The position numbers and the translations under genes are program-made. Below are positions 30,825 through 49,193 of a DNA stretch of 64,000 bases, piece by piece. The stretch spans positions 46,728 through 110,727 of the forward strand of contig CABJCJ010000005.1 in NCBI GenBank assembly GCA_902364065.1. The letters are read 5' to 3'. The notes under the pieces are model-generated. The model was given only the letters and a program-made list of their open reading frames with translations, was not told the origin of the DNA and searched no databases. Position 1 is the stretch's first letter. Each line of letters starts with the position of its first letter. Origin of the DNA: Veillonellaceae bacterium SB90. Lineage in GTDB: Bacteria; Bacillota; Negativicutes; Selenomonadales; Selenomonadaceae.

Positions 30825-31721
30825 TTATCGTGACAGGATTTTCTGGACAGCGGTCAGGAAGCGGCTCACAGCAGCAGACGGCTCCGTCGCGTGCAGGATG
30901 CCGAACGGGATCTCGTAGTCCCAGTCCACGGGGATGACGCGCATCAGCGGGTGGATGTCCTTCCACTCCGGCACGCCGATCATGAGCGTTCCCTCGTTGA
31001 CACAGCGGTTGAACATGTCGATGTTGTAGAACGGGAACTCGCGCAGCGTGATGTCCGGGTGATTCACCAGGAGGTCCTGCCGCAGATCATCCATGACGGA
31101 AGACCAGCCGGGCTGGATGATGTCGACCGTCTCCCCTGCTAAATCGGAGAGCTTCAGGCGCTCCTTGCCCGCAAGTCGGTGCGTGAGCGGCACGACCATG
31201 GAAAACGGCTCACGACGGAGTTCCATGCCCTCGCACTTGCCCTTGAGATGAAACATGCTCGCATCGAAGACGCCCGCGACCACATCGATGTTTACGCCGA
31301 GATGCGTGAGGATCTCGCGCGCGTTCTCTGGCGTGTTCTCGAACGACACGAGCTGGAACTGCAGGTCGGGACTAACCTCCTGCAGCTTTGGCCAAAGGCT
31401 CAGCAGAAAATTCGTCGGCGTCATGACCGAGATGCCGATGCGGATGACCTGCTGCGTATCCTGCATGGCCTTGCGCGCCCGTTCCACAGCTTCCTTGCTG
31501 TACTGGACGAGATACGCCGCATCCTTGTAGAGCGACTCGCCCGCCTTCGTGAGCTGCAGGCCGCGATGCGTGCGCTCAAACAAGCGCAGGTTGAGCCGTG
31601 CCTCCATCAGGTTGATCTGCTTGATGACGGCCGGCGCCGAGATGAAGAGCGCTTCCGCCGCCTTGCTGAAGCTCCCCTCCTCTGCCGCTTTCATGAAGGT
31701 TATCAATTGTGGATTGTACAA
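30825..31721 (-). CDS. LysR-family transcriptional regulator
   Basis: 298 residues with an N-terminal winged helix (FMKAAEEGSFSKAAEALFIS, then VIKQINLMEARLNLRLFERT) and a substrate-binding domain. The start is TTG 31719-31721. It lies between the iron-type alcohol dehydrogenase upstream and the hydrolase downstream, all on the minus strand. The three copies of the T-N11-A box within 1.6 kb make it the natural candidate regulator of promoters A, B and C. Confidence 0.92.
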   Translation of the reverse strand: MYNPQLITFMKAAEEGSFSKAAEALFISAPAVIKQINLMEARLNLRLFERTHRGLQLTKAGESLYKDAAYLVQYSKEAVERARKAMQDTQQVIRIGISVMTPTNFLLSLWPKLQEVSPDLQFQLVSFENTPENAREILTHLGVNIDVVAGVFDASMFHLKGKCEGMELRREPFSMVVPLTHRLAGKERLKLSDLAGETVDIIQPGWSSVMDDLRQDLLVNHPDITLREFPFYNIDMFNRCVNEGTLMIGVPEWKDIHPLMRVIPVDWDYEIPFGILHATEPSAAVSRFLTAVQKILSR

Positions 31722-33610: not shown

Positions 33611-34285
33611 TTACTTTGCTGCGCTCAGCGAGCGAACCCACTCCACGACCTTGGTGTCGTCAAGGCTGCCCGTGAAGCACGTGCCGTCCTGCCAGTTGCC
33701 CTTGCCGCCGGCCATCTCGGCGAGCAGCTTGCCGCTGTTACCGAGTGGCGAGCTGTAGGCCGTCGCGAACGTCACGACGTTCTTGCCCGTGAAGTCGTTG
33801 GCCTTGACGAAGGCATCGACCGGCCAGGCCGCGATGGCCCACCAGATCGGATAGCCGAGGAAGATCGTGTCATACGACGCCCAGTTGTCCGGCACCGCCT
33901 TCTGCAGCTGGATCTTCTCGCGCAGCGAGGCATCGTCGTGCTCACGGCTCACGCGGCTGTTCTTGTCGTTGTAGTCGAGGTCCGCCTCCGTGTAGTCCGG
34001 ATTCGGCACGAGCTTCATGATGTCGGCCTGGCGCGCCTTGGCGATGACCTTGGCCACGCGCTCCGTGCGCCCCGTCGCCGAATAATAGACGACGAGCGTC
34101 TTGCCGCCTGCCGCCACCGTGCCCGAGGACGAAGACGAAGCCACCGTGCCACTGGCTGCACCAGCGGCACTGCTCGCGGCCTGACTGCTCGACGAACTTC
34201 CCGTCAGCGAAGACAGGCCGCATCCCCCCAGCACCAGAGTCATCATGCTCATGCCACCCATTTTCAAAAATTCTCTGCGATTCAT
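33611..34285 (-). CDS. flavodoxin-domain lipoprotein
   Basis: Exported flavodoxin of 224 residues. The start at ATG 34283-34285 overlaps the upstream stop (ATGA). The N-terminus MNRREFLKMGGMSMMTLVLG has a twin-arginine-like motif and a lipobox (LVLGGC), so it is probably a lipid-anchored protein facing the periplasm. A Ser/Ala-rich linker of about 40 residues precedes the flavodoxin domain, with the FMN loop VVYYSATGRTERVA and the region DTIFLGYPIWWAIAAWP. Third gene of a coupled operon with a small membrane protein and a DUF4405 protein, suggesting electron delivery across the membrane (inference). Confidence 0.88.
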   Translation of the reverse strand: MNRREFLKMGGMSMMTLVLGGCGLSSLTGSSSSSQAASSAAGAASGTVASSSSSGTVAAGGKTLVVYYSATGRTERVAKVIAKARQADIMKLVPNPDYTEADLDYNDKNSRVSREHDDASLREKIQLQKAVPDNWASYDTIFLGYPIWWAIAAWPVDAFVKANDFTGKNVVTFATAYSSPLGNSGKLLAEMAGGKGNWQDGTCFTGSLDDTKVVEWVRSLSAAK

Positions 34286-34944
34286 TTCAAGCGCGCCCCT
34301 TTCCAAAGCGATAAAAGCCAACCAATTTCTGCGAATAAGATGATGATGCCGACCTGCGTCAGTGCGTAGCCAGCACCGCTGTACGAGAGTGCCGGCGCCA
34401 TGAAGATATGCGCGCCCTGCAGGCGCTCGACGAGGATGTCCTGTTGCGCTGCGTGGATGCCGCCCGCCCCGAGCAGCACCCCGAGGCCCAGCAGGAGCAT
34501 CCTAGCCGGCAACGGCCGCGCATTGATGCCCGCCGCATGCAGCCACCGCTGCCACCAGCTCGGCAGATGCCAGCCAAGATGCAGTCCTGCCAGCACGAGG
34601 AAGTACCGTGCTGCCGTGCTGTGCAGCTGGTACAAGGAAGGATTGCTGCGCAGCGAGAACGGCACGATGCCGGCAAACAACTGGCTCGAAGTCAGGCAGC
34701 CGCTGACGATCGTCACAAGGAAGAAAACCGCGAGCAGGGCATTCAATATGAGCCGTACCCTGCGCGGCCCATTCCAGTGCCCGCACGCCAGCGAAGAAAC
34801 ATAGCGCCGGTTGAGTCCCAGATGATAAAGGATGGGGAGGAGCATGATGACACCTACAATCTCATGCAGCACGGGCGGCAGGTAGAAGAATGTCATCTCA
34901 AAGATGAGCATCATCAAGAGCAACACATCCAATAGATACCTCAT
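34282..34944 (-). CDS. DUF4405-family membrane protein (cytochrome b-like)
   Basis: Membrane protein of 220 residues with about five to six hydrophobic segments. The pattern YLPPVLHEIVGVIMLLPILY followed by HLGLNRRYV, and HSTAARYFLVLAGLHLGWHLP later, matches DUF4405, whose paired histidines resemble the haem ligands of small b-type cytochromes. Its start and stop each overlap the neighbouring genes by ATGA, so translation is coupled through the operon. Haem binding and an electron-transfer role are inferred from the histidines, not shown. Confidence 0.82.
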   Translation of the reverse strand: MRYLLDVLLLMMLIFEMTFFYLPPVLHEIVGVIMLLPILYHLGLNRRYVSSLACGHWNGPRRVRLILNALLAVFFLVTIVSGCLTSSQLFAGIVPFSLRSNPSLYQLHSTAARYFLVLAGLHLGWHLPSWWQRWLHAAGINARPLPARMLLLGLGVLLGAGGIHAAQQDILVERLQGAHIFMAPALSYSGAGYALTQVGIIILFAEIGWLLSLWKGARLK

Positions 34945-35219: not shown

Positions 35220-35250
35220 ACGATATCATCCGGTAGTTGCTACCGGTCAA
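35220..35250 (-). promoter_or_regulatory. MerR-type promoter/operator, copy 2
   Basis: Minus-strand TTGACC (35245-35250), 19-base spacer, TATCGT (35220-35225), enclosing CCGGTAGCAACTACCGG (35230-35246). The half-sites are identical to copy 1 upstream of the alcohol dehydrogenase; only central bases differ. It overlaps the last codons and the TAG stop of the preceding 72-residue frame. Confidence 0.85.
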
Positions 35251-35458
35251 GTCTTTTCTGCTCCAGTTCGTAAATCATGTAGTCGATGCACGCGAGTTTC
35301 TCCTGTGCTGCATGCAGGTCATCCATGAGCCTGCGGCGGTGGCGCCTGAGGAAGCAGATGCGCGCATCATCGTCCGGCAACGCAGCGAGCTCGCACTGGC
35401 AGACATCTGGATCGAATCGGTCTTGTTCCTGTCGCTCTGCCAAACATGTTCTTGCCAT
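35240..35458 (-). CDS. 72-residue protein resembling a MerR C-terminal helix
   Basis: A short gene with an excellent ribosome site (ACAGGAGGATTTTGA) and its own promoter (TTCACA, 17 bases, TAAAAT at 35496-35524). Residues 38-70 (RRHRRRLMDDLHAAQEKL, then ACIDYMIYELEQKR) look like the antiparallel dimerisation helix that ends MerR-family regulators, but no DNA-binding domain is present. It could be a regulator remnant or a partner that forms heterodimers; no function is assigned. Its stop codon lies inside MerR operator copy 2. Confidence 0.6.
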   Translation of the reverse strand: MARTCLAERQEQDRFDPDVCQCELAALPDDDARICFLRRHRRRLMDDLHAAQEKLACIDYMIYELEQKRLDR

Positions 35459-35495
35459 TCAAAATCCTCCTGTACATTCGCTTCTTTATATCTTC

Positions 35496-35524
35496 ATTTT
35501 AAGTGCTCTGCCTCACAATGTGAA
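35496..35524 (-). promoter_or_regulatory. TTCACA-type regulated promoter, site 1
   Basis: Minus-strand TTCACA (35519-35524), 17 bases, TAAAAT (35496-35501), with the flanking motif ATAAGCATTTCACA shared with sites 2-4. It drives the 72-residue gene, divergent from the LysR gene at 35641. Confidence 0.7.
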
Positions 35525-35569
35525 ATGCTTATGTCTTAACTTGTGTCATACGTTTTTTCTATCAAACGC

Positions 35570-35598
35570 TTGCGAAAAAAGCATCTGCTCCCTACAAT
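35570..35598 (+). promoter_or_regulatory. promoter of the divergent LysR gene
   Basis: TTGCGA (35570-35575), 17 bases, TACAAT (35593-35598). Imperfect arms GCATCT and AGATGC flank the -10 (35581-35586 and 35605-35610), a possible autoregulatory site. Confidence 0.65.
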
Positions 35599-35640
35599 AG
35601 AAGTAGATGCTTTGAACGTATAAAAGGGGGAAATTTTGAG

Positions 35641-36564
35641 ATGGAACTCCGCACGTTATCGTATTTCCTGGCTGTGGCCAGGGAGCAGAACATGACCGAG
35701 GCAGCCAATGTGCTGCACGTGACGCAGCCGACGCTCTCGCGCCAGATTGCGGATCTCGAGAATGAGCTCGGCAAGAAGCTCTTCACGCGCACGAGCCGCA
35801 GCACCATCCTGACCGAAGACGGCATGCACCTGCGCCAGCGGGCTGAAGAGATTCTCGCGCTCGTCAACCAGACGGAGGACGAGCTCAAGAACGACACGAT
35901 TGACCTTTCGGGCTGCATCCGCATCGGCGCAGGCGAAACCCATGTCGTGCACCTGCTTGCCGACCTCTTCGTCAAACTGCATGACCGCTACCCGCGCCTG
36001 ACGCTAGAACTCTTCACAGGCAATGCCGACACCGTCGAAGAAAAGCTCGCACATGGCCTGCTCGACTTCGCGCTGATGATCGAGCCATTCAACGTGGAGC
36101 ACTACAACTTCATCCGCCTGCCCGAGGTCATGCGCCTCGGCGTCGTGACGCGCGATGACAGTCCTTGGGCCCAGAAAGACGGCATCACACCGGAAGACCT
36201 CAACGAGATGCCGCTGATGATTCCTTCACGCCAGTCCGCTAATCGCTTCGATTTCCGACAATGGTCGCAGGGTAAGGTAACAGACGAAACGCTCCACATC
36301 GTGGGACGCTTCGATCTCATCGGCAATGCCGCCCACTTCATCCGCGCAGGTTTTGCCAACACCATCAGCGTCGACGAACTGCTGCAGCTTGAGACCGGCC
36401 ATCTGAAATTCGTACCGCTGAAACCGACACTTTCCCTGACCGCCGTCATCGTCTGGAAAAAATACCGCCTGCTCTCCCGGTCCAGCACAGTCTTCCTCAA
36501 AGAGCTCCGTCAGTGTATCGACGAAGCGTCAGAAGCGGATTCCCAGGCCCAGCAGCCCTCCTGA
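35641..36564 (+). CDS. LysR-family transcriptional regulator
   Basis: 307 residues; helix-turn-helix LAVAREQNMTEAANVLHVTQ followed by TLSRQIADLENELGKKLFTR, then an effector-binding domain. ATG after AAAGGGGGAAATTTTGAG. It is one of the few plus-strand genes of the island and lies between two minus-strand redox operons. Sites with the TGTGAAAT motif occur next to it and ahead of three further transcription units, so it is the best candidate for controlling them; the effector is unknown. Confidence 0.93.
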   Translation: MELRTLSYFLAVAREQNMTEAANVLHVTQPTLSRQIADLENELGKKLFTRTSRSTILTEDGMHLRQRAEEILALVNQTEDELKNDTIDLSGCIRIGAGETHVVHLLADLFVKLHDRYPRLTLELFTGNADTVEEKLAHGLLDFALMIEPFNVEHYNFIRLPEVMRLGVVTRDDSPWAQKDGITPEDLNEMPLMIPSRQSANRFDFRQWSQGKVTDETLHIVGRFDLIGNAAHFIRAGFANTISVDELLQLETGHLKFVPLKPTLSLTAVIVWKKYRLLSRSSTVFLKELRQCIDEASEADSQAQQPS

Positions 36565-36581
36565 ATCGATTTGATGTGTTC

Positions 36582-37268
36582 TTATAGGTTTGCACCCATC
36601 TGCTCCGCCATATCGCCGAACTTCGAGTGCTCGACGAGCGAGCGCGAGCCGCAGCCGATGCCGAGCACTTTGCCGGCATCCTGCCATTCCATATAGCGGA
36701 CTAAAGTATCGTAGTGATCGACAAGGGCCGACATCGTCCAGTCGTCACGGTTGTAGGCCGTCGCCATCAGGATGGACTTCTTGCCATGCAGTTTGCCCGT
36801 GCGCGAATAAAAGCGGTCGACGATGGTCTTGAGCTGTGCCGACATGCCGAAGTAGTAGAGCGGCGTCGTCAGCACAAGCAAGTCCGCCTCGAGCATCTTC
36901 GGCATCAAGGTATTCTCGATGTCATCCTTCCAGATACACGGGCCGTCCATATGACACTGATCGCAGCCGCGGCACGGATGTGTATCGCTGTTGGCCGCAT
37001 CAAAGGTGAACACCTCATGGCCAGCCTGCGTCGCACCCTTCGTGAAGCGGTCAGCCAAATAAATGGACGTTGACTCATCATGCGGATGAGGACTGCTTGT
37101 GATCACGACGATTTTCATGTCTTTCCCTCCCGAAACACTGCCTGCTGCCTGCGCAGCATCACCCGACAATCCTGCCGATGAGTCCTTGAGTGCCGACAGA
37201 CCACACCCGCTCAGGAAAATGGTCATAGCTCCCATGCCCGTCAGCTTCAAGAAGTCCCTGCGATTCAT
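36582..37268 (-). CDS. exported flavodoxin-like FMN reductase (lipoprotein)
   Basis: 228 residues. The N-terminus MNRRDFLKLTGMGAMTIFLS has a twin-arginine-like motif and a lipobox ending in LSGC, so it is probably lipid-anchored. The flavodoxin-like domain has VVITSSPHPHDESTSIYLAD and LLVLTTPLYYFGMSAQLK. A cysteine-rich insert PCRGCDQCHMDGPCIWKDD resembles that of WrbA/Isf-type flavoproteins and could bind a metal cluster. Last gene of the unit that starts with the alcohol dehydrogenase at 39826. Confidence 0.86.
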   Translation of the reverse strand: MNRRDFLKLTGMGAMTIFLSGCGLSALKDSSAGLSGDAAQAAGSVSGGKDMKIVVITSSPHPHDESTSIYLADRFTKGATQAGHEVFTFDAANSDTHPCRGCDQCHMDGPCIWKDDIENTLMPKMLEADLLVLTTPLYYFGMSAQLKTIVDRFYSRTGKLHGKKSILMATAYNRDDWTMSALVDHYDTLVRYMEWQDAGKVLGIGCGSRSLVEHSKFGDMAEQMGANL

Positions 37269-37292
37269 TTAAGTCACTCCTCTTCTACTGGT

Positions 37293-37772
37293 CTATTTAG
37301 CTGCCGGTTCCTGATAGACTTCCTTGGCATAGCGAAATGCCGCCCAGGCCTTCGGCCAGCCGCCGTAGAAGCCGACCTGCGTGATGATCTCTGCCATCTC
37401 CGCTTTCGTCACGCCGTTCTTCTTCGCCGACTCGATGTGATATTTGAGCGAGCTGTCGGTGATGCCCTGTGCAATCAATGCAGAGACCGTCACGATGCTG
37501 CGGTCATGCAGCGAGAGCACATCGTTCTTGCTCCAGACTTCACCGAACAGGATATCATCATTGTAGCGGGCGAAATCCGGCGCAAAATCGCCGAGCTGCT
37601 GGCGTCCTGCTGTCTGTACGATCTTGACGGCCTTCTTGGCCGGTGCGGGCGTCGATGCCTGTATCGCTGCCGCATTTCCATTGTCCGGCTGAGCCGATGC
37701 TGCTTCACTTTGAACCATGCCTGTCCCCCAAAAAAGAATACTGAGTAAGGCAATCGCTGCGCTCCTTATCAT
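37293..37772 (-). CDS. secreted carboxymuconolactone decarboxylase-family protein
   Basis: 159 residues with a signal peptide (SAAIALLSILFWGTGMVQSE). The mature part shows the family pattern DFARYNDDILFGEVWSK, RSIVTVSALIAQG and VGFYGGWPKAWAAF. The CxxC of AhpD-type peroxidases is absent, so peroxidase activity is unlikely. It is a secreted paralogue of the N-terminal half of the protein encoded at 42550-43287. Confidence 0.87.
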   Translation of the reverse strand: MIRSAAIALLSILFWGTGMVQSEAASAQPDNGNAAAIQASTPAPAKKAVKIVQTAGRQQLGDFAPDFARYNDDILFGEVWSKNDVLSLHDRSIVTVSALIAQGITDSSLKYHIESAKKNGVTKAEMAEIITQVGFYGGWPKAWAAFRYAKEVYQEPAAK

Positions 37773-37809
37773 CTTGAAAACTCCTTTCCCAAATTTCTCT
37801 CAGCTACTC

Positions 37810-38028
37810 TTATGCTATGCCATTCCCGTGCAGCCACGCCTTGACGCGCGGACGGTAACCGCGGCGGATTTCCTCCTGCGACTTGCGGACGACCGTGTCA
37901 TAGTCTTCATGGTAGTCATCCGGCGCTGCGATCTTCAGGATATCCGCCTGCAGTGCCTGCTGCAGTACCTTTGCGATGCGCTCCGTATTGCCATTTGACC
38001 AAGTGAAATAGACGACAAGTGCTTTCAT
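37810..38028 (-). pseudogene. truncated flavodoxin (N-terminal half)
   Basis: Encodes 72 residues, beginning MKALVVYFTWSNGNTERIAK with an intact FMN phosphate loop, then stops after VRKSQEEIRRGYRPRVKAWL. Flavodoxins of this type are about twice as long, and the isoalloxazine-binding half (the YDTIFLGYPIWW region seen in the paralogue at 33611) is missing. It overlaps the flavin reductase gene by 4 bp, so it is still translated in the operon, but it is probably non-functional as a flavodoxin. Confidence 0.65.
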
Positions 38029-38576
38029 TTCTGGCGGTGATTCATGCGTGCACAGTCGCCGACTTTCTCACCTGTGACGAAGTACTCATAAGTTGGGAAC
38101 TCGAACAGGACAGGCTTGAACTTGTGGTAGTCGATCTTGCCAGCATCATTGAGGATGGTTTCGTTTGCATAGGTCGCTTCAATGCGGCAGATGAAATTGT
38201 CGAAACCATCCAATTCGAGGGTGTTAACCAAGGTGCATTCAATGGAAACCTTGGCCTCGTCGATGAGCGGTGCACCGTTTTCACCGATGGTGTAGGCAAA
38301 AGCGGCGGATTTATCCGTCTTATTGCCGGAAACCACACCCATGTAGTCGGCTTCCTTGAGCCAGCTCTCATCAACGACATTAACGGAAACTTTCTTCGTC
38401 TCTTTGATGCCCTTATTTGTATGATGTTTTTGTACCATCGACAGCATCAGATGGCTATGCGCCACTATGCCGGCATGGGCGACAAGCGTCCAGTTCGGCT
38501 TGCCATCAACCATGCTGCCGACGACGATGAGCGGTGAGGGATAGAGTGCCAATGCCTTACCGATATTTTGCTTCAT
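38025..38576 (-). CDS. flavin reductase-family protein
   Basis: FMN-binding split-barrel protein of 183 residues: PSPLIVVGSMVDGKPNWTLV, AHAGIVAHSHLMLSMVQKHH, KKVSVNVVDESWLKEADYMG and an ECTLVNTLELDGFDNFICRI segment. This group includes flavin reductases and flavoredoxins. ATG start; the stop overlaps the flavodoxin fragment (ATGA). It follows the second alcohol dehydrogenase by about 80 bp. Confidence 0.88.
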   Translation of the reverse strand: MKQNIGKALALYPSPLIVVGSMVDGKPNWTLVAHAGIVAHSHLMLSMVQKHHTNKGIKETKKVSVNVVDESWLKEADYMGVVSGNKTDKSAAFAYTIGENGAPLIDEAKVSIECTLVNTLELDGFDNFICRIEATYANETILNDAGKIDYHKFKPVLFEFPTYEYFVTGEKVGDCARMNHRQK

Positions 38577-38656
38577 GCTAGTTCACCTTTCTATTCTTAA
38601 TCTACCAGTTCTTTGTCCCTCGGATACTCTTATCAATCAATGATGGCAACGCATCC

Positions 38657-39826
38657 TCAAAGGCTCTCCTTCAGGATCTTGACGATCTCCTCGTGATCCA
38701 GTACCTTGTAGCCGCCCTCAAGGATGAGCGTACCGTCGGCAATGCCCTCAATCATGTCTTCCGTCGCGCCGAGCTCAGAGATGTTCATCGCGAGGCCGAG
38801 CTCTTTCATCCAGGCTTCCATGGCCTTGAGGCCTTCCTCGGCAATCGCTTCATCCGTCTTGCCCTCTGGATTGACCTTCCAGACCTCGATGGCGAAGCGC
38901 TTGAATTTCGGCAGGCCGTACGGCAGTATGTGGCGGTAGTACGGCAGGGAGACGGCGGCGAGCGTCATGCCGTGCGTTGCGTTCGTATAAGCGCCGACGG
39001 CCTGTCCGAGCATGTGGACCATCCAGTCCGTGCTCTTGCCTTTGGCAATCAATGTGTTGAGTGCCCAGGTCGCCGTCCACATCAGGTTGCTGCGAGCCTC
39101 GTAGTCCTGCGGATTCTTGTTGGCAATGCGGCTGGCATGCAGCACCGAGCGCATCAGACCCTCGCTGATGTAGTCGCTCGTCGTATCGTCTGTGCCGGAG
39201 AAATACTGCTCACAGATATGATTGAAGATGTCGTAGATGCCGGCCACCATCTGGCGGTGCGGCAGCGTCATCGTGTACCGCGGGTTCAGGATGGCAAAGC
39301 GCGGGATGATCTTCTCATCCGCGAAGACATGACCGATCTTCTGCTTCGTCTCCTGATTGGTGATGACGGCACCCGCATTCATCTCCGAGCCCGTGCCGAC
39401 CATCGTCAGCACACAGCCGACCGGCAGCGTCTCGCAGGACGGCTCCTCAAAGCGCAGGAAGTACTTCTGCCAAGGATCCTCCTCACAGTTGACCGAGACC
39501 GAGACAGCTTTCGCATAGTCGCAGACCGAACCACCGCCGACAGCCAGAAGGAAATCCGCCTGATGCTGGCGCGCAATCTCGATGCCCTCGTAGAGCTTCG
39601 CGAGCGTCGGATTCGGCATGACGCCAGAGATCTCCGCCACATTCTTGCCCTGTGCCTCCAGAATCTTGACGACATCATCGTAGATGCCATTTTTCTTGAT
39701 CGAGCCGCCGCCATAGATCAGGACGACGTTCTTGCCGTACTTCGGCAGCTCCTCATTCAAGTAGTCCAGCGACTGATCACCGAAATAGAGCTTTGCCGGG
39801 TTGCAATAAGAAAAATTTCCTAACAT
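38657..39826 (-). CDS. iron-type alcohol dehydrogenase with a replaced metal ligand
   Basis: 389 residues, paralogue of the dehydrogenase at 31779. The cofactor motifs AVGGGSVCDYAKA and TMVGTGSEMNAGAVI are present. Of the metal ligands, Asp and His in GIYDIFNHICEQY and the last His in NATHGMTL are present, but the third position is glutamine (MLGQAVGAY, against MIEHQLGAY in the paralogue). Metal type or activity may therefore differ. ATG start; promoter site 2 lies about 50-80 bases upstream. Confidence 0.9.
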   Translation of the reverse strand: MLGNFSYCNPAKLYFGDQSLDYLNEELPKYGKNVVLIYGGGSIKKNGIYDDVVKILEAQGKNVAEISGVMPNPTLAKLYEGIEIARQHQADFLLAVGGGSVCDYAKAVSVSVNCEEDPWQKYFLRFEEPSCETLPVGCVLTMVGTGSEMNAGAVITNQETKQKIGHVFADEKIIPRFAILNPRYTMTLPHRQMVAGIYDIFNHICEQYFSGTDDTTSDYISEGLMRSVLHASRIANKNPQDYEARSNLMWTATWALNTLIAKGKSTDWMVHMLGQAVGAYTNATHGMTLAAVSLPYYRHILPYGLPKFKRFAIEVWKVNPEGKTDEAIAEEGLKAMEAWMKELGLAMNISELGATEDMIEGIADGTLILEGGYKVLDHEEIVKILKESL

Positions 39827-39878
39827 GTGTTTTGCTCCTTTTATCCAAACTACGATCTAACTTCTCTCGCTTTTCTCT

Positions 39879-39907
39879 ATGATAGCAAGAGAATGATTCC
39901 ATGTGAA
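39879..39907 (-). promoter_or_regulatory. TTCACA-type regulated promoter, site 2
   Basis: Minus-strand TTCACA (39902-39907), 17 bases, TATCAT (39879-39884). Further upstream the sequence ATAGCAGATGATTTTC (39917-39932) is shared with sites 3 and 4. It drives the alcohol dehydrogenase operon (39826 to 36582). Confidence 0.75.
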
Positions 39908-39994
39908 ATGCCTATTGAAAATCATCTGCTATAGAAAAAATGCATGGCATAGAATGGAAACGATGCTTATTCCATGATAGTGCTATGGCGCATT

Positions 39995-41194
39995 TTACCG
40001 GTCTGTTCCGTCCGGCAGTAGCAGATGCTCATCACCGATACGCTCATCCGCCTGGCAGTGCACGAACTTTGTGAGCAGCAGGGCCGTTGTTGCCATCACC
40101 AGTCCGCCACAGACGACGTAGGGCAGGCCGAGGCTGCGGATGAAGAAGCCGCTGAGCATGGTTCCCGCCATGCAGCCGAGATTGGCTGCTGTCAGGAACA
40201 GGCCATTGCTGAAATCCGGTGCATCCGACGCCACGCAGGCCAGCAGGTACTGATTGATGTTCGCGTTGATGCCACCGAGGATGCCCCAGGCCACGATCAG
40301 TGCCGCGAGGAGCGGCAGCAGCTGGCCACCGCTCACAAATAGCAGGCCGTAGAGCACGATGGTGCACAGTGGGAAAAGGCGTACGGTCGCGCGAGGACGC
40401 TTGGCGAGGAAATTGCCGCCCAGATAGCTTCCGTAGATGTTCAAGAGGCCGTAGACGAGAAGCAGAGCTGCGATGAACTGTCCCGGCAGCGCCGCAATCT
40501 GCTGCAGGTAGTCAGCAAGGTAGTTGTAGACGCCGAAGATCGAGCCATTGAGGCAGATGACCGCCACGATGGACAGCCAGACCGGCGGGCGCTTCAGGAC
40601 GGAAAGCTGCGCACCGTAGCGCATCGGCTGCGCCACAGGCAAATCCGGCACGAAGGCCATCGTCAGCAGGAACATGAGCCCCGTCACACCTGCAAAGAAG
40701 GCCATCGCCACCGAGAAGTCAAACGTCGCAGCCAAGACATTGCTGATGGGCACGCCGATAACCATGCCAGCGGCGACGCCCATATTGATGCGCGCCACGG
40801 CTCGCGGTGCATCCTCTGGAACCACCGAAGCCGCGGCCACGCTGAAGGCGAGCGCGCAGTAGACCGGATGGAAGAAGGCCGGCACGACGCGCAGCACCAG
40901 CAGGAGCTGGAAATCACTCGCAAAGACAGCCAGTGCATTGCAGAACGTAAACACGCCCAGCACAAGCAGCATCACGCGCTTGCGGTTGAAGCGCGAGAAC
41001 AAGAGCGGCATCGTCGGCCCCGCTATGGCCACACCGAGTGCAAACAGGCTGACGAGCAGCCCCGCCTGCACGATATTCACCTGGTACATCTCCGCCGCCA
41101 TCGGCAGGATGCCGATGATGCCCATCTCCGTATTGAGGATGCTGAACACACCGAATGCCAGAAGCAAGAGCAGTAACTGCTGCTGTCGTTTCAT
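39995..41194 (-). CDS. MFS transporter (AraJ/YdhP-like drug or sugar efflux)
   Basis: 399 residues, about 12 transmembrane segments. The opening FSILNTEMGIIGILPMAAEM and the cytoplasmic loop LFSRFNRKRVMLLVLGVFT match the DHA1-type efflux subfamily of the major facilitator superfamily. A central charged loop separates the six-helix halves. The substrate cannot be read from the sequence. It lies downstream of the small secreted stub and the promoter at 41405-41433. Confidence 0.88.
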   Translation of the reverse strand: MKRQQQLLLLLLAFGVFSILNTEMGIIGILPMAAEMYQVNIVQAGLLVSLFALGVAIAGPTMPLLFSRFNRKRVMLLVLGVFTFCNALAVFASDFQLLLVLRVVPAFFHPVYCALAFSVAAASVVPEDAPRAVARINMGVAAGMVIGVPISNVLAATFDFSVAMAFFAGVTGLMFLLTMAFVPDLPVAQPMRYGAQLSVLKRPPVWLSIVAVICLNGSIFGVYNYLADYLQQIAALPGQFIAALLLVYGLLNIYGSYLGGNFLAKRPRATVRLFPLCTIVLYGLLFVSGGQLLPLLAALIVAWGILGGINANINQYLLACVASDAPDFSNGLFLTAANLGCMAGTMLSGFFIRSLGLPYVVCGGLVMATTALLLTKFVHCQADERIGDEHLLLPDGTDR

Positions 41195-41268
41195 CTCATC
41201 TCATCCTTTCTTCTTCCTGACCGAGCTCTATCTCATGGATTCAAGGTCAGGAATACATCACCTGCGCC

Positions 41269-41340
41269 TTAGGCGAACGTCCCCATCATCACGGCGACCA
41301 TCAGCCAAGCAGCTCTCTTCTTGTTCTTGAAATTCTTCAT
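41269..41340 (-). CDS. 23-residue signal-peptide-like stub
   Basis: MKNFKNKKRAAWLMVAVMMG followed by TFA and a stop, preceded by a strong ribosome site (AAGGAAGGGG). It looks like the 5' end of an exported-protein gene that was truncated, in front of the MFS gene. It might act as a short leader peptide; no homologue is recognised. Confidence 0.35.
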   Translation of the reverse strand: MKNFKNKKRAAWLMVAVMMGTFA

Positions 41341-41404
41341 GGAAAAAACCCCTTCCTTATTGCATCTCATCATTGCCTATCCTGTTGTTTTGCTTGATGA
41401 GTTT

Positions 41405-41433
41405 ATTATAAGGGAAGGGGTTTATGATTACAA
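41405..41433 (-). promoter_or_regulatory. promoter ahead of the stub and MFS gene
   Basis: Minus-strand TTGTAA (41428-41433), 17 bases, TATAAT (41405-41410). Immediately upstream ACAAGGTATTTGT has ACAA/TTGT ends, comparable with ACCAAGCATTGGT in front of the hydrolase at 48163. Confidence 0.65.
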
Positions 41434-41450
41434 ATACCTTGTTTTAACTA

Positions 41451-41826
41451 TTAATAATGCTTATTAGGCATGATTAGAAAAACCTCGTCCAGAGCCGCCA
41501 CGACGAGACGGCCGGCGCGGGAGAAGACCTGATCTCTGCGCCAGACCACATAATTCGCCGAGCGCAGCTCTGGCTCCAGCGGCCGGAAAACCAGCCCGCG
41601 TGACGTTTCCACAGCATCCGCCATGCCCTTGAAGCAAAGCGCACTGCCTATGCCCGCCTCAATGAAGAAGATCGTATTGTAGAGCAGGTTGTAGGTGCCA
41701 GCCACCTCAATCTTCTCCGCTGCACTGCCGAAGTAATGATCCAGCTCATGACGCTTCATCGCCTGCTCCGACAAAATCAGAGGCTCCTCTACGATGTCGG
41801 CGCGCGTCAGGACCTCCTCGCACTGC
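41451..41826 (-). pseudogene. 5'-truncated LysR regulator
   Basis: About 125 codons that align with the C-terminal part of a LysR effector domain (LTRADIVEEPLILSEQAMKR, TYNLLYNTIFFIEAGIGSAL, VVWRRDQVFSRAGRLVVAAL). The same segments occur in the intact LysR at 48300. The helix-turn-helix and first half are missing; the fragment begins immediately after the cupin stop at 41827, marking a deletion junction. Confidence 0.75.
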
Positions 41827-42369
41827 TCATTTCAGTTTCGCATACTCTGCTTCGCTCACAGGCTCCAGCCACTCTGTTGATGCGCCTTCCTTCATAATGG
41901 AGAGGTGCTGGAACCAGCTCGTGTGCTGTGCCCCATGCCAATGTTTCACATTCTCCGGGATGGTGACGCTTTCGCCCGGCAACAGTTCCTTCGGCTCCTC
42001 GCCCCAAATCTGGTAGTAACCCTTGCCCGATACCCCGGCCAAGACTTGACAGCTTCCATGATGCTTATGCCAAAAATTGATGCACCCCGGCTCAAATGTC
42101 ACATTGGCTACATTCACGCCCTTGCCCTGCATGGGGAACAGGAAACTCCTGCCCGTGAAATACTTGGCATATCCCGTGTTTGGCTGCCCGATGGGATAGA
42201 CCGCACCGCCTTCCTGCATGAGTGCTTGCGTGATTTCCGTTTCCGTTTGAGCATTTTTCACATTAAGGTCAGCAGCAAGGCATGTCGGCACAGACAGCGC
42301 CGTACTCGCCAAAAGAGCGGAAGCTGCCAGCCCTTTTGCCACTTTCGGAATCACATTGCGGATATTCAT
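41827..42369 (-). CDS. secreted cupin-domain protein
   Basis: 180 residues with a signal peptide (KGLAASALLASTALSVPTC, cleavage near CLAA). The cupin core is NVTFEPGCINFWHKHHGSCQ and the second motif PGESVTIPENVKHWHGAQH, with histidines suited to bind one metal. A segment YAKYFTGRSFLFP is shared with the fused CMD-cupin protein at 42550, so the two are paralogues. A 19-bp-spacer promoter lies about 30-60 bases upstream. Confidence 0.9.
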   Translation of the reverse strand: MNIRNVIPKVAKGLAASALLASTALSVPTCLAADLNVKNAQTETEITQALMQEGGAVYPIGQPNTGYAKYFTGRSFLFPMQGKGVNVANVTFEPGCINFWHKHHGSCQVLAGVSGKGYYQIWGEEPKELLPGESVTIPENVKHWHGAQHTSWFQHLSIMKEGASTEWLEPVSEAEYAKLK

Positions 42370-42399
42370 ATAAAATCCCCCTCGTAATGATGATGGTAA

Positions 42400-42430
42400 A
42401 TACTATGTCATTGGAGTGAGTATAGTCCAA
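42400..42430 (-). promoter_or_regulatory. possible MerR-type promoter of the secreted cupin
   Basis: Minus-strand TTGGAC (42425-42430), 19 bases, TAGTAT (42400-42405). The spacer contains TTGGA/TCCAA arms (42411-42415 and 42426-42430). The long spacer suggests MerR-type activation, but the operator differs from copies 1 and 2, and it overlaps a flavodoxin gene stub. Confidence 0.45.
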
Positions 42431-42462
42431 GAAAAATAGACGACGAGTGCTTTCTTCGCCAA
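42403..42462 (-). pseudogene. flavodoxin 5' stub
   Basis: From TTG 42460-42462 (AGAAGGA upstream) the frame encodes MAKKALVVYFSWTILTPMT and stops. The first dozen residues match the beta-1 strand and start of the FMN loop of flavodoxins (compare MKALVVYFTWSNGNTERI at 37810), after which the similarity is lost. It is a remnant of a deleted flavodoxin gene. Confidence 0.6.
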
Positions 42463-42549
42463 AATACATCCTTCTTTCTCATTCATCTTCTTACTTGGCC
42501 GAAAATTCCCCGCCAGCCTGAGGGAAATTTCTTTTGTTGCTTTTTATGA

Positions 42550-43287
42550 TCAGTCCTGCGGATATTCGCCATCCGTTACGGGCTCGCACCATTCGTTGCT
42601 CGTCTCCGTGCCCGGGATCTCGAAGGCGAGATGGGAGAACCAGCTCGCTCTCTTGGCACCGTGCCAGTGCTTGACGCCTGCCGGGATCTCGACGATGTCA
42701 CCTGGGATCAGGCTCTGCGGCGCTTTGCCCTCTTCCTGATACCAGCCCTCGCCGTCGACGCAGATGATGACCTGGCCGCCGCCCTGCTTGGCGTGGTGGA
42801 TGTGCCAGAAGTTGCGGCAGCCCGGCTCGAACGTGACGTTGCAGATGGTCAGCGGGTCGCCCTTCTTCGAGAGGACCTTGAGGTACGACTGGCCCGTGAA
42901 GTACTTGGCATAGGCATCGTTGGGCTCGCCGAGACCGAAGAAGCCGCCGCGATTCTCTGCATCAGCGGCATCGGCGTAGACTTCCTTGGCCACGGGGAAC
43001 GCCGCCCAGGCGTTCGGCCAGCCGGCGTAAAAGGCCAGATGCGTGAGCAGTGCGGCCATCTCCTCTTTCGTGACACCGTGCTGCCGCGCCGTCTGCAGAT
43101 GGTAGCGCAGTGCATCGCCAGCGGTTCCCTTGCCGACGAGCGCCGAGACCGTCGCGATGCTGCGAAGCTTCGGCGAGAGCTCCGCTTCCCTCGCCCATAC
43201 CTCGCCGAAGAGCACATCGTCGTTGAGCGCCGCAAACTGCGGTGCAAAATCGCCCAATGCCTTGTGTCCTGCTGTCTGTTTTTCCAT
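42550..43287 (-). CDS. carboxymuconolactone decarboxylase-cupin fusion
   Basis: 245 residues, cytoplasmic (no signal). Residues 1-115 are a CMD-family domain (DFAPQFAALNDDVLFGEVWA, RSIATVSALVGKG, LAFYAGWPNAWAAF); residues 130-245 are a cupin (CNVTFEPGCRNFWHIHH, IPGDIVEIPAGVKHWHGAK). The start at ATG 43285-43287 follows GAAGGA by six bases. The two halves correspond to the separate secreted proteins at 37293 and 41827. The promoter is site 3. Confidence 0.9.
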   Translation of the reverse strand: MEKQTAGHKALGDFAPQFAALNDDVLFGEVWAREAELSPKLRSIATVSALVGKGTAGDALRYHLQTARQHGVTKEEMAALLTHLAFYAGWPNAWAAFPVAKEVYADAADAENRGGFFGLGEPNDAYAKYFTGQSYLKVLSKKGDPLTICNVTFEPGCRNFWHIHHAKQGGGQVIICVDGEGWYQEEGKAPQSLIPGDIVEIPAGVKHWHGAKRASWFSHLAFEIPGTETSNEWCEPVTDGEYPQD

Positions 43288-43354
43288 GATGATTCCTTCT
43301 TCCTCGTATATCCGTGCCGCCAGATGCGGCACACTTGATTTCCTTGTTTTCTCT

Positions 43355-43391
43355 ATCGTAACAAAATAAGCATTTCATGTGAAATGCTTAT
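43355..43391 (-). promoter_or_regulatory. TTCACA-type regulated promoter, site 3, with full palindrome
   Basis: Minus-strand TTCACA (43378-43383), 17 bases, TACGAT (43355-43360). The -35 lies in a 26-bp palindrome (43366-43391) with perfect 12-base arms ATAAGCATTTCA and TGAAATGCTTAT. Upstream, GAAAATCATCTGCTAT (43393-43408 on the plus strand) is shared with sites 2 and 4. Confidence 0.8.
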
Positions 43392-43430
43392 CGAAAATCA
43401 TCTGCTATTCAAAAATTGTATGGTATGACA

Positions 43431-44540
43431 TCAGGTATCCCACCACTCTGAGAAGGCGGCTGGCGACCACAGGGCGACCTTATCCCCGATCTCGGGCGTC
43501 AGGAGCTGCCACGGAGCTCCTGTGCTGGCGGCGGTCAGATCCTGCATCGGGGCCTGCCAGGTGTGCTTGGCCAGCGCAAACTTTGAATTGTGAGCGGGCA
43601 TGACATAGCGCGCCCGCAGGTCCGTTGCCGCCTGCGCTGTCTCATCTGGCAGCATGTGGATGCGGTGCCATCGGCGGTCGTACTGGCCATTTTCCATCAG
43701 GGCTAGGTCAAAGCCGCCGAACTGCTCGCCGATGGCGCGGAAGTGCGCGCCATAGCCGCCGTCGCCGCTGTAGTAGACCTTGTGCTCCGACGTCACGATG
43801 GCAAAGGAGGCCCACTGCGTCGCATTCTGCTCGAGCAGGCGTCCGGAAAAGTGCTGAGATGGCAGCACGTGGACGTGGAAGTCCGGGAAGACCTCGATGT
43901 CCGTATCCCAGTCCTCCTCATGGAGATGCGCGGGGTCAAATTCCCAGGCCTCAAAGTACTCCCCGACGCCCAGGGGGCAGACGATTTCCCCAATCTTGTC
44001 CTTGAGCGCCATGATGGTCGGATAGTCGAGATGGTCCCAGTGGTCGTGGCTCATGATCAGGAGGTCGACGGCAGGGATGTCCGCCGCCCTGTAGACGTTG
44101 CTGCCCGAAAAGGCACGATTGAGGAAAAACACCGGCGAGGCATAACTGCTGAAGACCGGGTCGATGAGGATGCGCCGGCCGGCGAGCTGCAAGTAGAACG
44201 TCGAATGGCCCATCCAGACGACGAAGTCCTCGCTCGCGTCCTGTGCCCAGAGGTCCGTCTTCGCACTGGGCAGCGGTGCATCCGGCACCGAGCCCGTCTT
44301 GTCCTCTGTCAAATAGTTCAGCCAGCCTGTCACGAGATTCTGGTTCTCGTCCTCCATAACGCGCACAGGTTCAAGGCATTCAAAGCGCCCATTGATGTAA
44401 TGAGGCGATGCCTGCATGCGTGCCAGGCGTTCCGGCCGGAATGGCCGCCCAAAGCGCGCGGAGTGCAGATACCCCGCCCCTCCGACCGCAGCCGCTCCGA
44501 GCACGCCCAATCCCCCCAGTATAAAAGTCCGTCGATTCAT
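43431..44540 (-). CDS. Tat-exported metallo-beta-lactamase-fold hydrolase
   Basis: 369 residues. Start at ATG 44538-44540 after GGAGAGCAAG gives MNRRTFILGGLGVLGAAAVG, a twin-arginine leader. The metal-binding motif SHDHWDHLD near 165, an upstream VVWMGHSTFYLQL, HVLPSQHFSGR and a late AHNSKFAL are in the arrangement of the UlaG/NAPE-PLD-like branch. The substrate is unknown. Promoter site 4 lies about 50 bases upstream. Confidence 0.88.
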   Translation of the reverse strand: MNRRTFILGGLGVLGAAAVGGAGYLHSARFGRPFRPERLARMQASPHYINGRFECLEPVRVMEDENQNLVTGWLNYLTEDKTGSVPDAPLPSAKTDLWAQDASEDFVVWMGHSTFYLQLAGRRILIDPVFSSYASPVFFLNRAFSGSNVYRAADIPAVDLLIMSHDHWDHLDYPTIMALKDKIGEIVCPLGVGEYFEAWEFDPAHLHEEDWDTDIEVFPDFHVHVLPSQHFSGRLLEQNATQWASFAIVTSEHKVYYSGDGGYGAHFRAIGEQFGGFDLALMENGQYDRRWHRIHMLPDETAQAATDLRARYVMPAHNSKFALAKHTWQAPMQDLTAASTGAPWQLLTPEIGDKVALWSPAAFSEWWDT

Positions 44541-44584
44541 CTTGCTCTCCATTTCGTCTTTGTTTCCGTTATTTTATCTTCTCC

Positions 44585-44613
44585 ATCATAGCAAAATAAG
44601 CATTTCCTGTGAA
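44585..44613 (-). promoter_or_regulatory. TTCACA-type regulated promoter, site 4
   Basis: Minus-strand TTCACA (44608-44613), 17 bases, TATGAT (44585-44590); near-palindrome ATAAGCATTTCC/TGAAATACTTAT at 44596-44621, then GAAAATCATCTGTTAT. It serves the metallo-hydrolase gene and closely matches site 3 over about 50 bases. Confidence 0.78.
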
Positions 44614-44658
44614 ATACTTATCGAAAATCATCTGTTATTTTTTTTACGTATAGCAGGA

Positions 44659-45210
44659 TCAGGAATCTCGCCGCCATTGCCTTTTGCAGCGCCGGACGCA
44701 CCAGATGGCAAGCTTCGCAGCGCCAAAGCCGATGAGCACGCCGGCAAGGACGTCGGTCGGGTAATGGACGCCGAGGTACAGGCGGGAGAGCCCGACAAAA
44801 GCGGCTACGAGCAGCGCGGGGATGCTGTAGCGCTTCGGCAGCAGCGCGCAGATGACGAAAGCGACGGCAAACGCACAGGACGTGTGGCCGGACGGGAACG
44901 AGAAGTCCGCCGGCAGGTGGATGAGCGGATGGAGCTCAGGATGCGTGATGAATGGGCGCGGGCGGGCCACCCAGTTCTTCAGGATGACATTCGCGACCAA
45001 CGTGTTGATGACGATGGCCAACATGGCCGTCGCTCCGCAAAGGCGCGTCCTGCGGTAAATGAACAGAGCCAGTGCAATGGCAATCCAGATGGCGCCCATG
45101 TTGCCAAGGTCCGTCATCGACTCCCAGAAATCCGTCGCATCCTCCCCGCGGATGTTCTGCTGAATCCAGAGCAGGATCTGAAAGTCCAAGTCTGTGATAC
45201 GCTGCATCAT
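44659..45210 (-). CDS. PAP2-family membrane phosphatase
   Basis: About 183 residues with six hydrophobic segments. All three PAP2 motifs are present: KNWVARPRP, FPSGHTSCAF and SRLYLGVHYPTD. These enzymes dephosphorylate lipid phosphates such as undecaprenyl diphosphate or phosphatidate. Several in-frame ATGs follow AAGGAG; the one at 45208-45210 has the best spacing, while the longest frame starts at 45237. Confidence 0.9.
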   Translation of the reverse strand: MMQRITDLDFQILLWIQQNIRGEDATDFWESMTDLGNMGAIWIAIALALFIYRRTRLCGATAMLAIVINTLVANVILKNWVARPRPFITHPELHPLIHLPADFSFPSGHTSCAFAVAFVICALLPKRYSIPALLVAAFVGLSRLYLGVHYPTDVLAGVLIGFGAAKLAIWCVRRCKRQWRRDS

Positions 45211-48299: not shown

Positions 48300-49193
48300 T
48301 CAATCATGTGAACCGAAGACTTCTTCGAGGCGGGCGCGCACGATGGCGGCGGCGCGCGAGAAGACCTGCTCTTTCTTCCAGATCAGGTAGTTGTGGGAGG
48401 AAAACGCCGGTGCAAACGGCCGGAAGGTCAGATTGGGATGCTCAGGCCCTTCGATGGGAACCAGGCCTTTGAAGGACAGCAGGAGCCCCAGGCGCTGCTC
48501 GGCGAGGAAGGCGGCGTTGTAGACGAGATTGTAGGTCGCCCGGATGTCGAGCTCTTCGGGATCCTTGCCGAGCCAGTGTGCAAAGACGTGATCGCGCAGG
48601 AGCTGGCGTGAGATGATCAGCTGCTCCCCGTAGAGGTCACATGGTGCAATCGCAGTCTTCTGCGCCAACGGATGGTCTCTGCGCAGGTAGAGTCCCCATT
48701 CGTCGTCAAACGGAACCTGACGGTAGACGAAGTCCGCCGGCGGCGTCTGCTGGCACAAGAGGCCAAAGTCCAGCACGCCCTTCTGCAGGGCGTCGAAAGT
48801 CTGCTCGTCGTTGCCGCTGACGAAGTGAAAGTGAATCTGCGGATAAGCGCGCCCGAGAGGCGTCAGGGCCTGCACGACGAGCCGCACGGCCTGTGTCTCG
48901 CCGCAGCCGAGATAAACGTCGCCCGCGATGAAGTCCTCGAGATGGGCGAACTGGTCGAGCGTCTTTGTCTCGATGGCCGTCATCTCCTCGGCGCGCGCCT
49001 TGAGGAAGAGGCCGGCTTCCGTCAGCTCCATACGGCGCTTCTCGCGCGTAAAGAGCGGCGTGCCGAGCTCCGCCTCGAGATCCTGCAGCTGCCGTGAGAG
49101 CGTCGGCTGCGTCAGGTGGAGCTCCTCCGCCGCCCGCGTGATGTTGCGGTGACGCGCGACGGCCAGGAAATATTTCAAGACTCGCAGTTCCAT
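48300..49193 (-). CDS. LysR-family transcriptional regulator
   Basis: 297 residues: helix-turn-helix LAVARHRNITRAAEELHLTQ, TLSRQLQDLEAELGTPLFTR and a full effector domain. ATG after CAGGAGGAAGATC. It precedes the secreted hydrolase in the same direction and is closely related to the truncated LysR fragment at 41451. Likely controls the promoter at 48231-48259. Confidence 0.93.
   Translation of the reverse strand: MELRVLKYFLAVARHRNITRAAEELHLTQPTLSRQLQDLEAELGTPLFTREKRRMELTEAGLFLKARAEEMTAIETKTLDQFAHLEDFIAGDVYLGCGETQAVRLVVQALTPLGRAYPQIHFHFVSGNDEQTFDALQKGVLDFGLLCQQTPPADFVYRQVPFDDEWGLYLRRDHPLAQKTAIAPCDLYGEQLIISRQLLRDHVFAHWLGKDPEELDIRATYNLVYNAAFLAEQRLGLLLSFKGLVPIEGPEHPNLTFRPFAPAFSSHNYLIWKKEQVFSRAAAIVRARLEEVFGSHD

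What the first reader, a model, noticed from the sequence alone, without database searches (positions are those of the whole stretch)
35496..44613. Four promoters with one shared TTCACA-N17 architecture define a regulon around the LysR gene at 35641
Sites at 35496-35524, 39879-39907, 43355-43391 and 44585-44613 all show, on the minus strand, TTCACA, exactly 17 bases and a TA-rich -10, with the -35 embedded in ATAAGCATTTCACA. Site 3 is a perfect 26-bp palindrome and site 4 a near one. Sites 2-4 also share ATAGCAGATGATTTTC-like sequence further upstream, where a LysR protein would normally sit. They precede, in order, a 72-residue gene divergent from the LysR, the second alcohol dehydrogenase operon, the CMD-cupin fusion and the metallo-hydrolase. 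These unrelated genes appear to be one response.
Basis: partly seen in the sequence, partly recalled or inferred. Interest (0 to 1): 0.72.

Follow-up and report, generated by a model that had tools for sequence, protein, structure and literature searches.

The report
LysR-run redox gene regulon in Mitsuokella
In a Mitsuokella-like gut bacterium, four promoters in front of different, mostly redox-type genes carry the same LysR-type box at exactly the same distance, and in relatives strong copies of this pattern occur almost only where the neighbouring LysR gene occurs, so one regulator likely controls all of them as a single response.

Summary
Each of the four promoters reads AT-N11-AT, 23 bp, TTCACA, 17 bp, TANNNT; the full pattern occurs 4 times in the window and 0 times in 150 simulated windows. 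The palindrome is not perfect (12 of 13 pairs at site 3, 2 of 13 at site 1) and is not the shared feature.

I tabulated 32 such sites, from the window and 10 relatives. Of 151 family genomes, all 8 with the LysR ortholog have strong sites; of the other 143, one does (G052), where only a decayed LysR copy was found. 37 genomes with a CMD-cupin gene but no such LysR lack the site. The LysR gene at 48300 does not track it. Exceptions: G052 and the MAG G004.

Best reading: an undescribed LysR regulon of ordinary mechanism, a new member of a known kind. A bolder, untested reading is negative feedback by antisense transcription: a regulon operon points head-on into lysR, and a conserved terminator-like hairpin lies in lysR's promoter. 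Binding, effector and direction of control are untested.

The parts
35641..36564 (+). LysR-type regulator, the predicted controller
   Evidence: Pfam HTH_1 and LysR_substrate; ortholog clade of 9 rows with 100/100 support; tracks the sites
35548..35562 (-). site 1: T-N11-A box ATAGAAAAAACGTAT, centre about -66
35496..35532 (-). site 1: half-site ATAAGCATTTCACAT (35518-35532), -35 TTCACA (35519-35524), -10 TAAAAT (35496-35501)
35240..35458 (-). 72-aa protein gene, target of site 1, divergent from lysR
   Evidence: ORF list; conserved beside lysR in relatives
39931..39945 (-). site 2: T-N11-A box ATGCATTTTTTCTAT
39879..39915 (-). site 2: half-site ATAGGCATTTCACAT (39901-39915), -35 (39902-39907), -10 TATCAT (39879-39884)
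36582..39826 (-). site-2 operon: Fe-ADH (38657-39826), flavin reductase-like (38025-38576), short flavodoxin-like (37810-38028), CMD (37293-37772), FMN reductase with TAT-like leader (36582-37268)
   Evidence: that it is one operon is inferred from the spacing
43407..43421 (-). site 3: T-N11-A box ATACAATTTTTGAAT
43355..43391 (-). site 3: half-site ATAAGCATTTCACAT (43377-43391), -35 (43378-43383), -10 TACGAT (43355-43360); imperfect palindrome 43366-43391 (12 of 13 pairs)
42550..43332 (-). CMD-cupin fusion gene, target of site 3
   Evidence: Pfam CMD and Cupin_2
44637..44651 (-). site 4: T-N11-A box ATACGTAAAAAAAAT
44585..44621 (-). site 4: half-site ATAAGTATTTCACAG (44607-44621), -35 (44608-44613), -10 TATGAT (44585-44590)
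43431..44552 (-). metallo-beta-lactamase-fold hydrolase gene, target of site 4
   Evidence: Pfam Lactamase_B_2
35570..35598 (+). promoter-like pair of lysR itself, TTGCGA-N17-TACAAT
35572..35611 (-). terminator-like hairpin with T tail, antisense to lysR; its loop holds the lysR -10
   Evidence: not listed by the standard scan

Best explanation
The four promoters form one regulon that is likely controlled by the LysR-type regulator encoded at 35641-36564, which is predicted to bind a T-N11-A box centred about 66 bp upstream of each predicted transcription start and a second half-site overlapping the -35 element. Shown by sequence: the four sites and 28 sites tabulated from relatives share one geometry (15-bp AT-N11-AT box, 23 bp, -35 hexamer), and strong sites track the LysR ortholog. 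Inferred from LysR-family knowledge: a tetramer is anchored at the upstream box; with an unknown effector its second pair of DNA-binding domains settles on ATAAGCATTTCACAT, which doubles as an off-consensus -35 (TTCACA), and helps RNA polymerase start, so that Fe-ADH, flavin/FMN reductases, flavodoxin, CMD/cupin proteins and the metallo-hydrolase are made together. Activation rather than repression is inferred. The signal is probably a reactive or redox-active small molecule (weak inference from the enzyme types).
For: Full pattern 4 in the window, 0 in 150 simulations. In 14 sites picked without using the box, AT-N11-AT lies at the 23-bp gap in 14 of 14 (next best: gap 0 in 11 of 14). The layout is that described for LysR proteins (PMC8407307, PMC6628147; passages). 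Strong R1 matches in 8 of 8 LysR-ortholog genomes and 1 of 143 others; the 8 orthologs plus the window's form one clade. 37 genomes with CMD-cupin but without this LysR have no R1 match at E <= 1e-4; 24 of those 37 loci scanned alone give 0 matches at E <= 1, against 4 of 4 from LysR genomes. Site 1 is divergent from lysR. In three relatives an intact site stands beside a decayed copy of this lysR.
Against: G052 has two strong sites but only a decayed lysR copy was found. G004 has a clear CMD-cupin site, but its best LysR hit is 40% identical and outside the clade. Weaker matches in other genomes (G098, G142 and others) lie beside other LysR genes or CMD/flavodoxin genes, so related LysR proteins may share the promoter type. 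The window's four boxes are imperfect forms of ATAC-N7-GTAT. The genomes are kin, and 4 of the 8 gave sites to the model. No binding or expression data.
Confidence: 0.82

Rival explanations
1. Another LysR protein of the same region (48300-49193, or the gene of which 41451-41774 is a fragment) controls sites 2-4, and only site 1 belongs to the LysR at 35641.
For: Sites 2-4 share sequence that site 1 lacks. In G142 a site-like match stands next to a LysR close to the 41451 one and an alpha/beta-hydrolase.
Against: LysR 41451 is only a fragment in the window and in G001, where the sites are kept. Close relatives of LysR 48300 (E <= 1e-90) are in 13 of 151 genomes, 9 of which have no strong site; 5 of the 9 strong-site genomes have no relative of it at E <= 1e-60. 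G063 has the 35641 ortholog between a 72-aa gene and a CMD-cupin gene, both with the same box geometry, though its CMD-cupin site is weak by the model (E 0.01).
Confidence: 0.08
2. A non-LysR repressor binds the palindrome over the -35 and spacer of sites 2-4.
For: The palindrome has 9-12 of 13 pairs at 10 of the 14 sites examined.
Against: It is nearly absent at sites of the site-1 type and in G004 (2-3 of 13 pairs) and degraded at site 2 (7 of 13), while the box, the left half-site and the -10 are kept. It does not explain the box at a fixed 23 bp.
Confidence: 0.05
3. The sites are recent copies of one promoter with no shared regulation.
For: Sites of the site-1 type share longer sequence, and one G001 copy also carries the terminator-like hairpin, so some sites did arise by duplication.
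Against: Across the two types and in distant genomes (G006, LysR 55% identical) the letters between box and half-site differ while the 23-bp gap, box ends and half-site stay. CMD-cupin promoters lack the pattern where the LysR is absent.
Confidence: 0.03

Closest known systems
LysR-type control with RBS near -65 and ABS at -35/-10 (general model, as told in PMC8407307, passages)
   Same: T-N11-A box at about -66, a second element over the -35, regulator gene divergent from one target
   Different: Transcription starts are predicted only; effector, tetramer and direction of control unknown
BenM/CatM of Acinetobacter (ATAC-N7-GTAT sites; PMC6628147, passages)
   Same: Box of the same form; exact ATAC-N7-GTAT in G004, G052, G063 and G091 sites; BenM and CatM are among the nearest solved structures by sequence
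   Different: Window boxes are imperfect forms; the targets are not an aromatic ring-cleavage pathway; N-terminal similarity only (E about 1e-16)
YhaJ of E. coli (LysR; two activation sites ABS and ABS'; PMC11739112, passages)
   Same: Possible parallel: the mirrored half-site in sites 3 and 4 could serve as a second activation site (inference)
   Different: The mirror is missing at site 1 and in many relatives
Antisense RNA over lexA by read-through from a convergent neighbour in S. aureus (PMC8745188, search listing and start of abstract only)
   Same: A convergent neighbour without a good terminator would read antisense over a regulator gene
   Different: Here only gene order and hairpins are known, no RNA

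Membership tests
LysR-type transcriptional regulator (protein at 35641) | N-terminal HTH_1 and C-terminal LysR_substrate domain | tested here: met
   Pfam 78.9 and 97.7 bits, above cut-offs
LysR-controlled promoter | T-N11-A box near -65 | tested here: met
   All four sites, 14 of 14 sites picked without the box; the start is predicted, not mapped
LysR-controlled promoter | Second site overlapping the -35 | tested here: met
   ATAAGCATTTCACAT-like 15-mer over the -35; weak dyad, 4 of 7 pairs in the consensus
LysR-controlled promoter | Box in the regulator's own divergent intergenic region | tested here: met
   Site 1 lies between lysR and the 72-aa gene
LysR-controlled promoter | Binding by the LysR tetramer and effector response | not testable with these tools
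   Needs gel shift, footprint and expression tests
Named LysR equivalogs (CynR, CidR, AlsR, OxyR, BenM and others in NCBIfam) | Score above the curated cut-off | tested here: not met
   The best, CynR, has 132.8 bits against a cut-off of 277; 25 of 56 families were shown, all below cut-off
BenM/CatM-type box | ATAC-N7-GTAT | tested here: inconclusive
   Exact in some relatives, imperfect at all four window sites
Excludon-like antisense control | Transcript of a neighbour running antisense over the regulator gene | tested here: inconclusive
   17-bp convergent gap without a terminator-like hairpin, hairpin in the lysR leader, a possible hairpin within lysR; no RNA data

The most novel reading that the evidence does not exclude
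The regulon limits its own activator by antisense transcription. The LysR-driven Fe-ADH operon of site 2 points head-on into lysR, with 17 bp between the stop codons and no terminator-like hairpin there; a strong one kept in the window and five relatives lies at the 5' end of lysR, with the lysR -10 in its loop. A highly active regulon would thus send antisense RNA across lysR and stop inside the lysR promoter, just short of the LysR box of site 1. In G063 a terminator-like hairpin sits in the convergent gap instead and none was found in the lysR leader.
Probability: 0.2. Interest if true: 0.55.

Novelty: new member of a known kind. Interest (0 to 1): 0.42.

Why it matters
It ties several poorly understood anaerobe gene families (CMD-cupin fusions, TAT-leader flavodoxins and FMN reductases, an unnamed 72-aa protein family, a metallo-hydrolase) to one predicted regulator in gut Selenomonadaceae, with a defined box that can be tested at once. 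Finding the effector would tell what these enzymes are for. Decayed lysR copies beside intact sites suggest a regulon served in trans by a remaining copy. Searches of the held paper library for a LysR regulon in Mitsuokella or Selenomonas, and for LysR with CMD, cupin and flavodoxin, found no such paper (listings only); most subscription papers are not in that library.

Tried and rejected
The perfect 26-bp palindrome as the shared operator: rejected. The LysR genes at 48300 and 41451 as controllers: not favoured. The model hits G001:C6:722197 and G005:C2:111303: set aside as chance, since ATAAGCAT there sits in the loop of a terminator-like hairpin (letters, read by eye).

Rows left out of the 32-site table: G098:C76:7936 (E 1.4e-5; before a gene read by eye as CMD-like, and a flavodoxin), G142:C3:99697 (E 4.9e-5; beside a LysR near the 41451 one and an alpha/beta-hydrolase), G142:C3:115942 (E 4.3e-4; partial, before an MBL gene), G006:C32:18006 (E 3.7e-4; before an unrelated large protein). 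Kept although weak: G063's CMD-cupin site (E 0.0135) and G006's flavodoxin site (E 1.9e-5); G002's lysR-side site (30325) lacks a -10. Weak hits in other Selenomonas genomes: of 14 loci looked at, 10 have a LysR-like gene or LysR-plus-hydrolase match nearby or a flavodoxin match; none was counted. At E <= 0.1 the model matches 60 of 151 genomes; most of these are expected to be chance.

Plasmid search with 35300-44700: no match. First LysR tree failed on a script error, repeated; the LysR at 30825 sits on a very long branch there, so its place means nothing.

To treat with care: R1 was trained on 19 sites picked with the pattern itself; E-values of home-made models are rough; one search used stricter filters (over 40 genomes); genome completeness was not given; G091's LysR is cut by a contig end after residue 173.
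Full report
WHERE IT IS. The window is from a Mitsuokella multacida-like genome: its CMD-cupin protein is 97% identical to that of M. multacida DSM 20544, and most neighbouring genes match that genome at 85-100%. No whole genome is held for the window. Relatives were reached through the loci: G001 M. multacida DSM 20544, G002 Selenomonas montiformis, G003 and G004 MAGs (SUG1706, RUG048), G005 M. jalaludinii DSM 13811, G006 uncultured Selenomonas RUG11133.

THE OBSERVATION. All four places hold TTCACA-N17-TANNNT on the minus strand. In 150 first-order Markov simulations this pattern has a mean of 0.15 against 5 observed (the four plus one at 57205), and ATRRGNATTTCACA 0.007 against 4. A consensus promoter scan finds no excess of promoters as such (6 against 5.6 expected), so it is the shared sequence that is unusual. 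The palindrome has 12 of 13 pairs at site 3 (central CA unpaired), 10 at site 4, 7 at site 2, 2 at site 1.

WHAT IS REALLY SHARED. Every site has a 15-bp AT-N11-AT box that ends exactly 23 bp before TTCACA: ATAGAAAAAACGTAT (site 1), ATGCATTTTTTCTAT (2), ATACAATTTTTGAAT (3), ATACGTAAAAAAAAT (4). The full pattern hits the window 4 times and never in the simulations. Counting from the -35 hexamer, the box centre is at about -66. ATAAGCATTTCACAT over the -35 is itself a 15-mer of AT-N11-AT form. This is the layout described for LysR proteins, T-N11-A near -65 plus an activation site at -35/-10 (PMC8407307, passages). The box resembles the BenM/CatM consensus ATAC-N7-GTAT (PMC6628147, passages).

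RELATIVES. A sequence-only model (R1, 75 columns, 19 sites) finds in the window only the four sites as strong hits (53-66 bits; the next, 12.7 bits, is the other strand of site 3). In G001 (2.6 Mb) it finds five convincing sites, all between 477 and 511 kb of one contig, in front of MBL, CMD-cupin, Fe-ADH, FMN reductase and the 72-aa gene; a sixth, partial hit was set aside. I tabulated 32 sites, 4 of the window and 28 of 10 relatives; 27 of the 32 have TTCACA exactly. Besides the window's targets they precede flavin reductase operons (G002, G003, G005, G047, G052), a cupin-CMD-flavodoxin operon led by the 72-aa homolog (G003, G005, G052, G091), an alpha/beta-hydrolase (G002), a flavodoxin (G006) and a CMD-cupin remnant (G005). 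The MBL gene keeps its own site in G003 although its order relative to CMD-cupin is changed there.

THE REGULATOR. In 151 family genomes the LysR at 35641 has an ortholog at E <= 1e-100 in 8 (G001, G002, G003, G005, G006, G047, G063, G091; the last cut by a contig end); the next hits fall to E 3e-67 at 42% identity. With the window's protein they form one clade of 9 with 100/100 support. R1 matches at E <= 1e-6 in 9 genomes: those 8 and G052. Four of the 8 gave sites to the model; G006, G047, G063 and G091 did not. CMD-cupin (E <= 1e-50) is in 43 of 151 genomes; 6 of them have this LysR, and the other 37 have no R1 match at E <= 1e-4. I scanned 24 of those 37 loci alone: 0 matches at E <= 1, against 4 of 4 loci from LysR genomes. 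So the site follows the regulator, not the target gene. LysR 48300 does not track the sites, and LysR 41451 is only a fragment here.

RESULTS AGAINST. G052 has two strong sites; beside one only short pieces of lysR remain (residues 1-39 and 129-149), and the contig of the other ends without lysR letters. G004 has a clear CMD-cupin site, but its best LysR hit is 40% identical and outside the clade. Weaker matches in G142 and other Selenomonas genomes sit beside other LysR genes, so related LysR proteins may use similar promoters. At E <= 0.1 the model matches 60 of 151 genomes. The genomes are kin, so the counts are not independent events.

TRACES OF HISTORY. In G005, G052 and G091 the cupin-CMD-flavodoxin operon has an intact site next to short remains of this lysR; G003 has operon and site without a detected remnant. 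The simplest reading (inference) is a duplicated lysR-operon unit in which one regulator copy decayed and the other serves both. In G001 the FMN reductase gene has its own site and lies 3.7 kb from the CMD gene; in the window the two are 24 bp apart and that site is absent.

HOW IT LIKELY WORKS. Shown: box, spacing, half-site over the -35, divergent lysR, co-occurrence. Inferred: binding of the tetramer, an effector, activation. The -35 (TTCACA) is off the TTGACA consensus by one letter, as is common for activator-dependent promoters (general knowledge). The enzyme set (Fe-ADH, flavin/FMN reductases, flavodoxin, CMD, cupin) suggests a reactive or redox-active small molecule as signal; this is a guess.

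A SECOND LAYER. lysR (end 36564) and the last gene of the site-2 operon (end 36582, other strand) converge with 17 bp between them. My hairpin scan found no terminator-like hairpin in the convergent gap of the window, G001, G002, G003, G005 or G047 (folds for five of these). Read antisense to lysR, a stem followed by T's lies in the lysR leader in 6 of 8 loci (window, G001, G002, G003, G005, G047), with two compensated pairs between GCATCT/AGATGC and GTACCT/AGGTAC; its loop holds the lysR -10. The standard scan did not list this hairpin in the window. A further possible hairpin lies inside lysR (about +540 to +570) in the window, G001 and G002, which weakens the claim that read-through reaches the leader. 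In G063 a hairpin with T's is in the gap instead; in G006 only a weak one within the gene was found. The convergent operon carries a regulon site in the window, G001, G002 and G063, but is the MFS gene without a site in G005 and G047. Negative feedback by antisense is therefore possible but untested.

VERDICT. It is an undescribed member of a well-known kind of system.

Noticed in passing
35572-35611 (minus strand): Terminator-like hairpin with T tail in the lysR leader, antisense to lysR, with compensated pairs among relatives.
   Followed up: partly
41451-41774: Fragment of a second LysR gene; full length in G002 and G005, a fragment in G001, two pieces in G047.
   Followed up: partly
35240-35458: 72-aa protein without a Pfam or NCBIfam match above threshold; relatives found in 13 of 80 CMD-cupin loci. 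It looks to me like the C-terminal helix of MerR proteins (recalled, not tested).
   Followed up: partly
37268-37293 against L090 4811-8515: About 3.7 kb present in G001 between the CMD and FMN reductase genes, with its own LysR-type site, is absent in the window.
   Followed up: no
33611-34944 and 36582-37268: Flavodoxin and FMN reductase with similar TAT-like leaders (MNRREFLK, MNRRDFLK), next to a DUF4405 membrane protein: perhaps a redox system outside the cytoplasm.
   Followed up: no
37810-38028: Flavodoxin-like ORF of only 72 aa, matching the first third of the Pfam model; the same length matches in G001.
   Followed up: no
L169 12006-12212, L175 5148-5296, L177 5660-5808: Short remains of decayed lysR copies beside intact LysR-type sites.
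   Followed up: partly
L182 4199-4244, L183 3304-3361: GATAAGCATTTC-like sequence in the loop of a terminator-like hairpin in two Mitsuokella genomes; probably chance.
   Followed up: no
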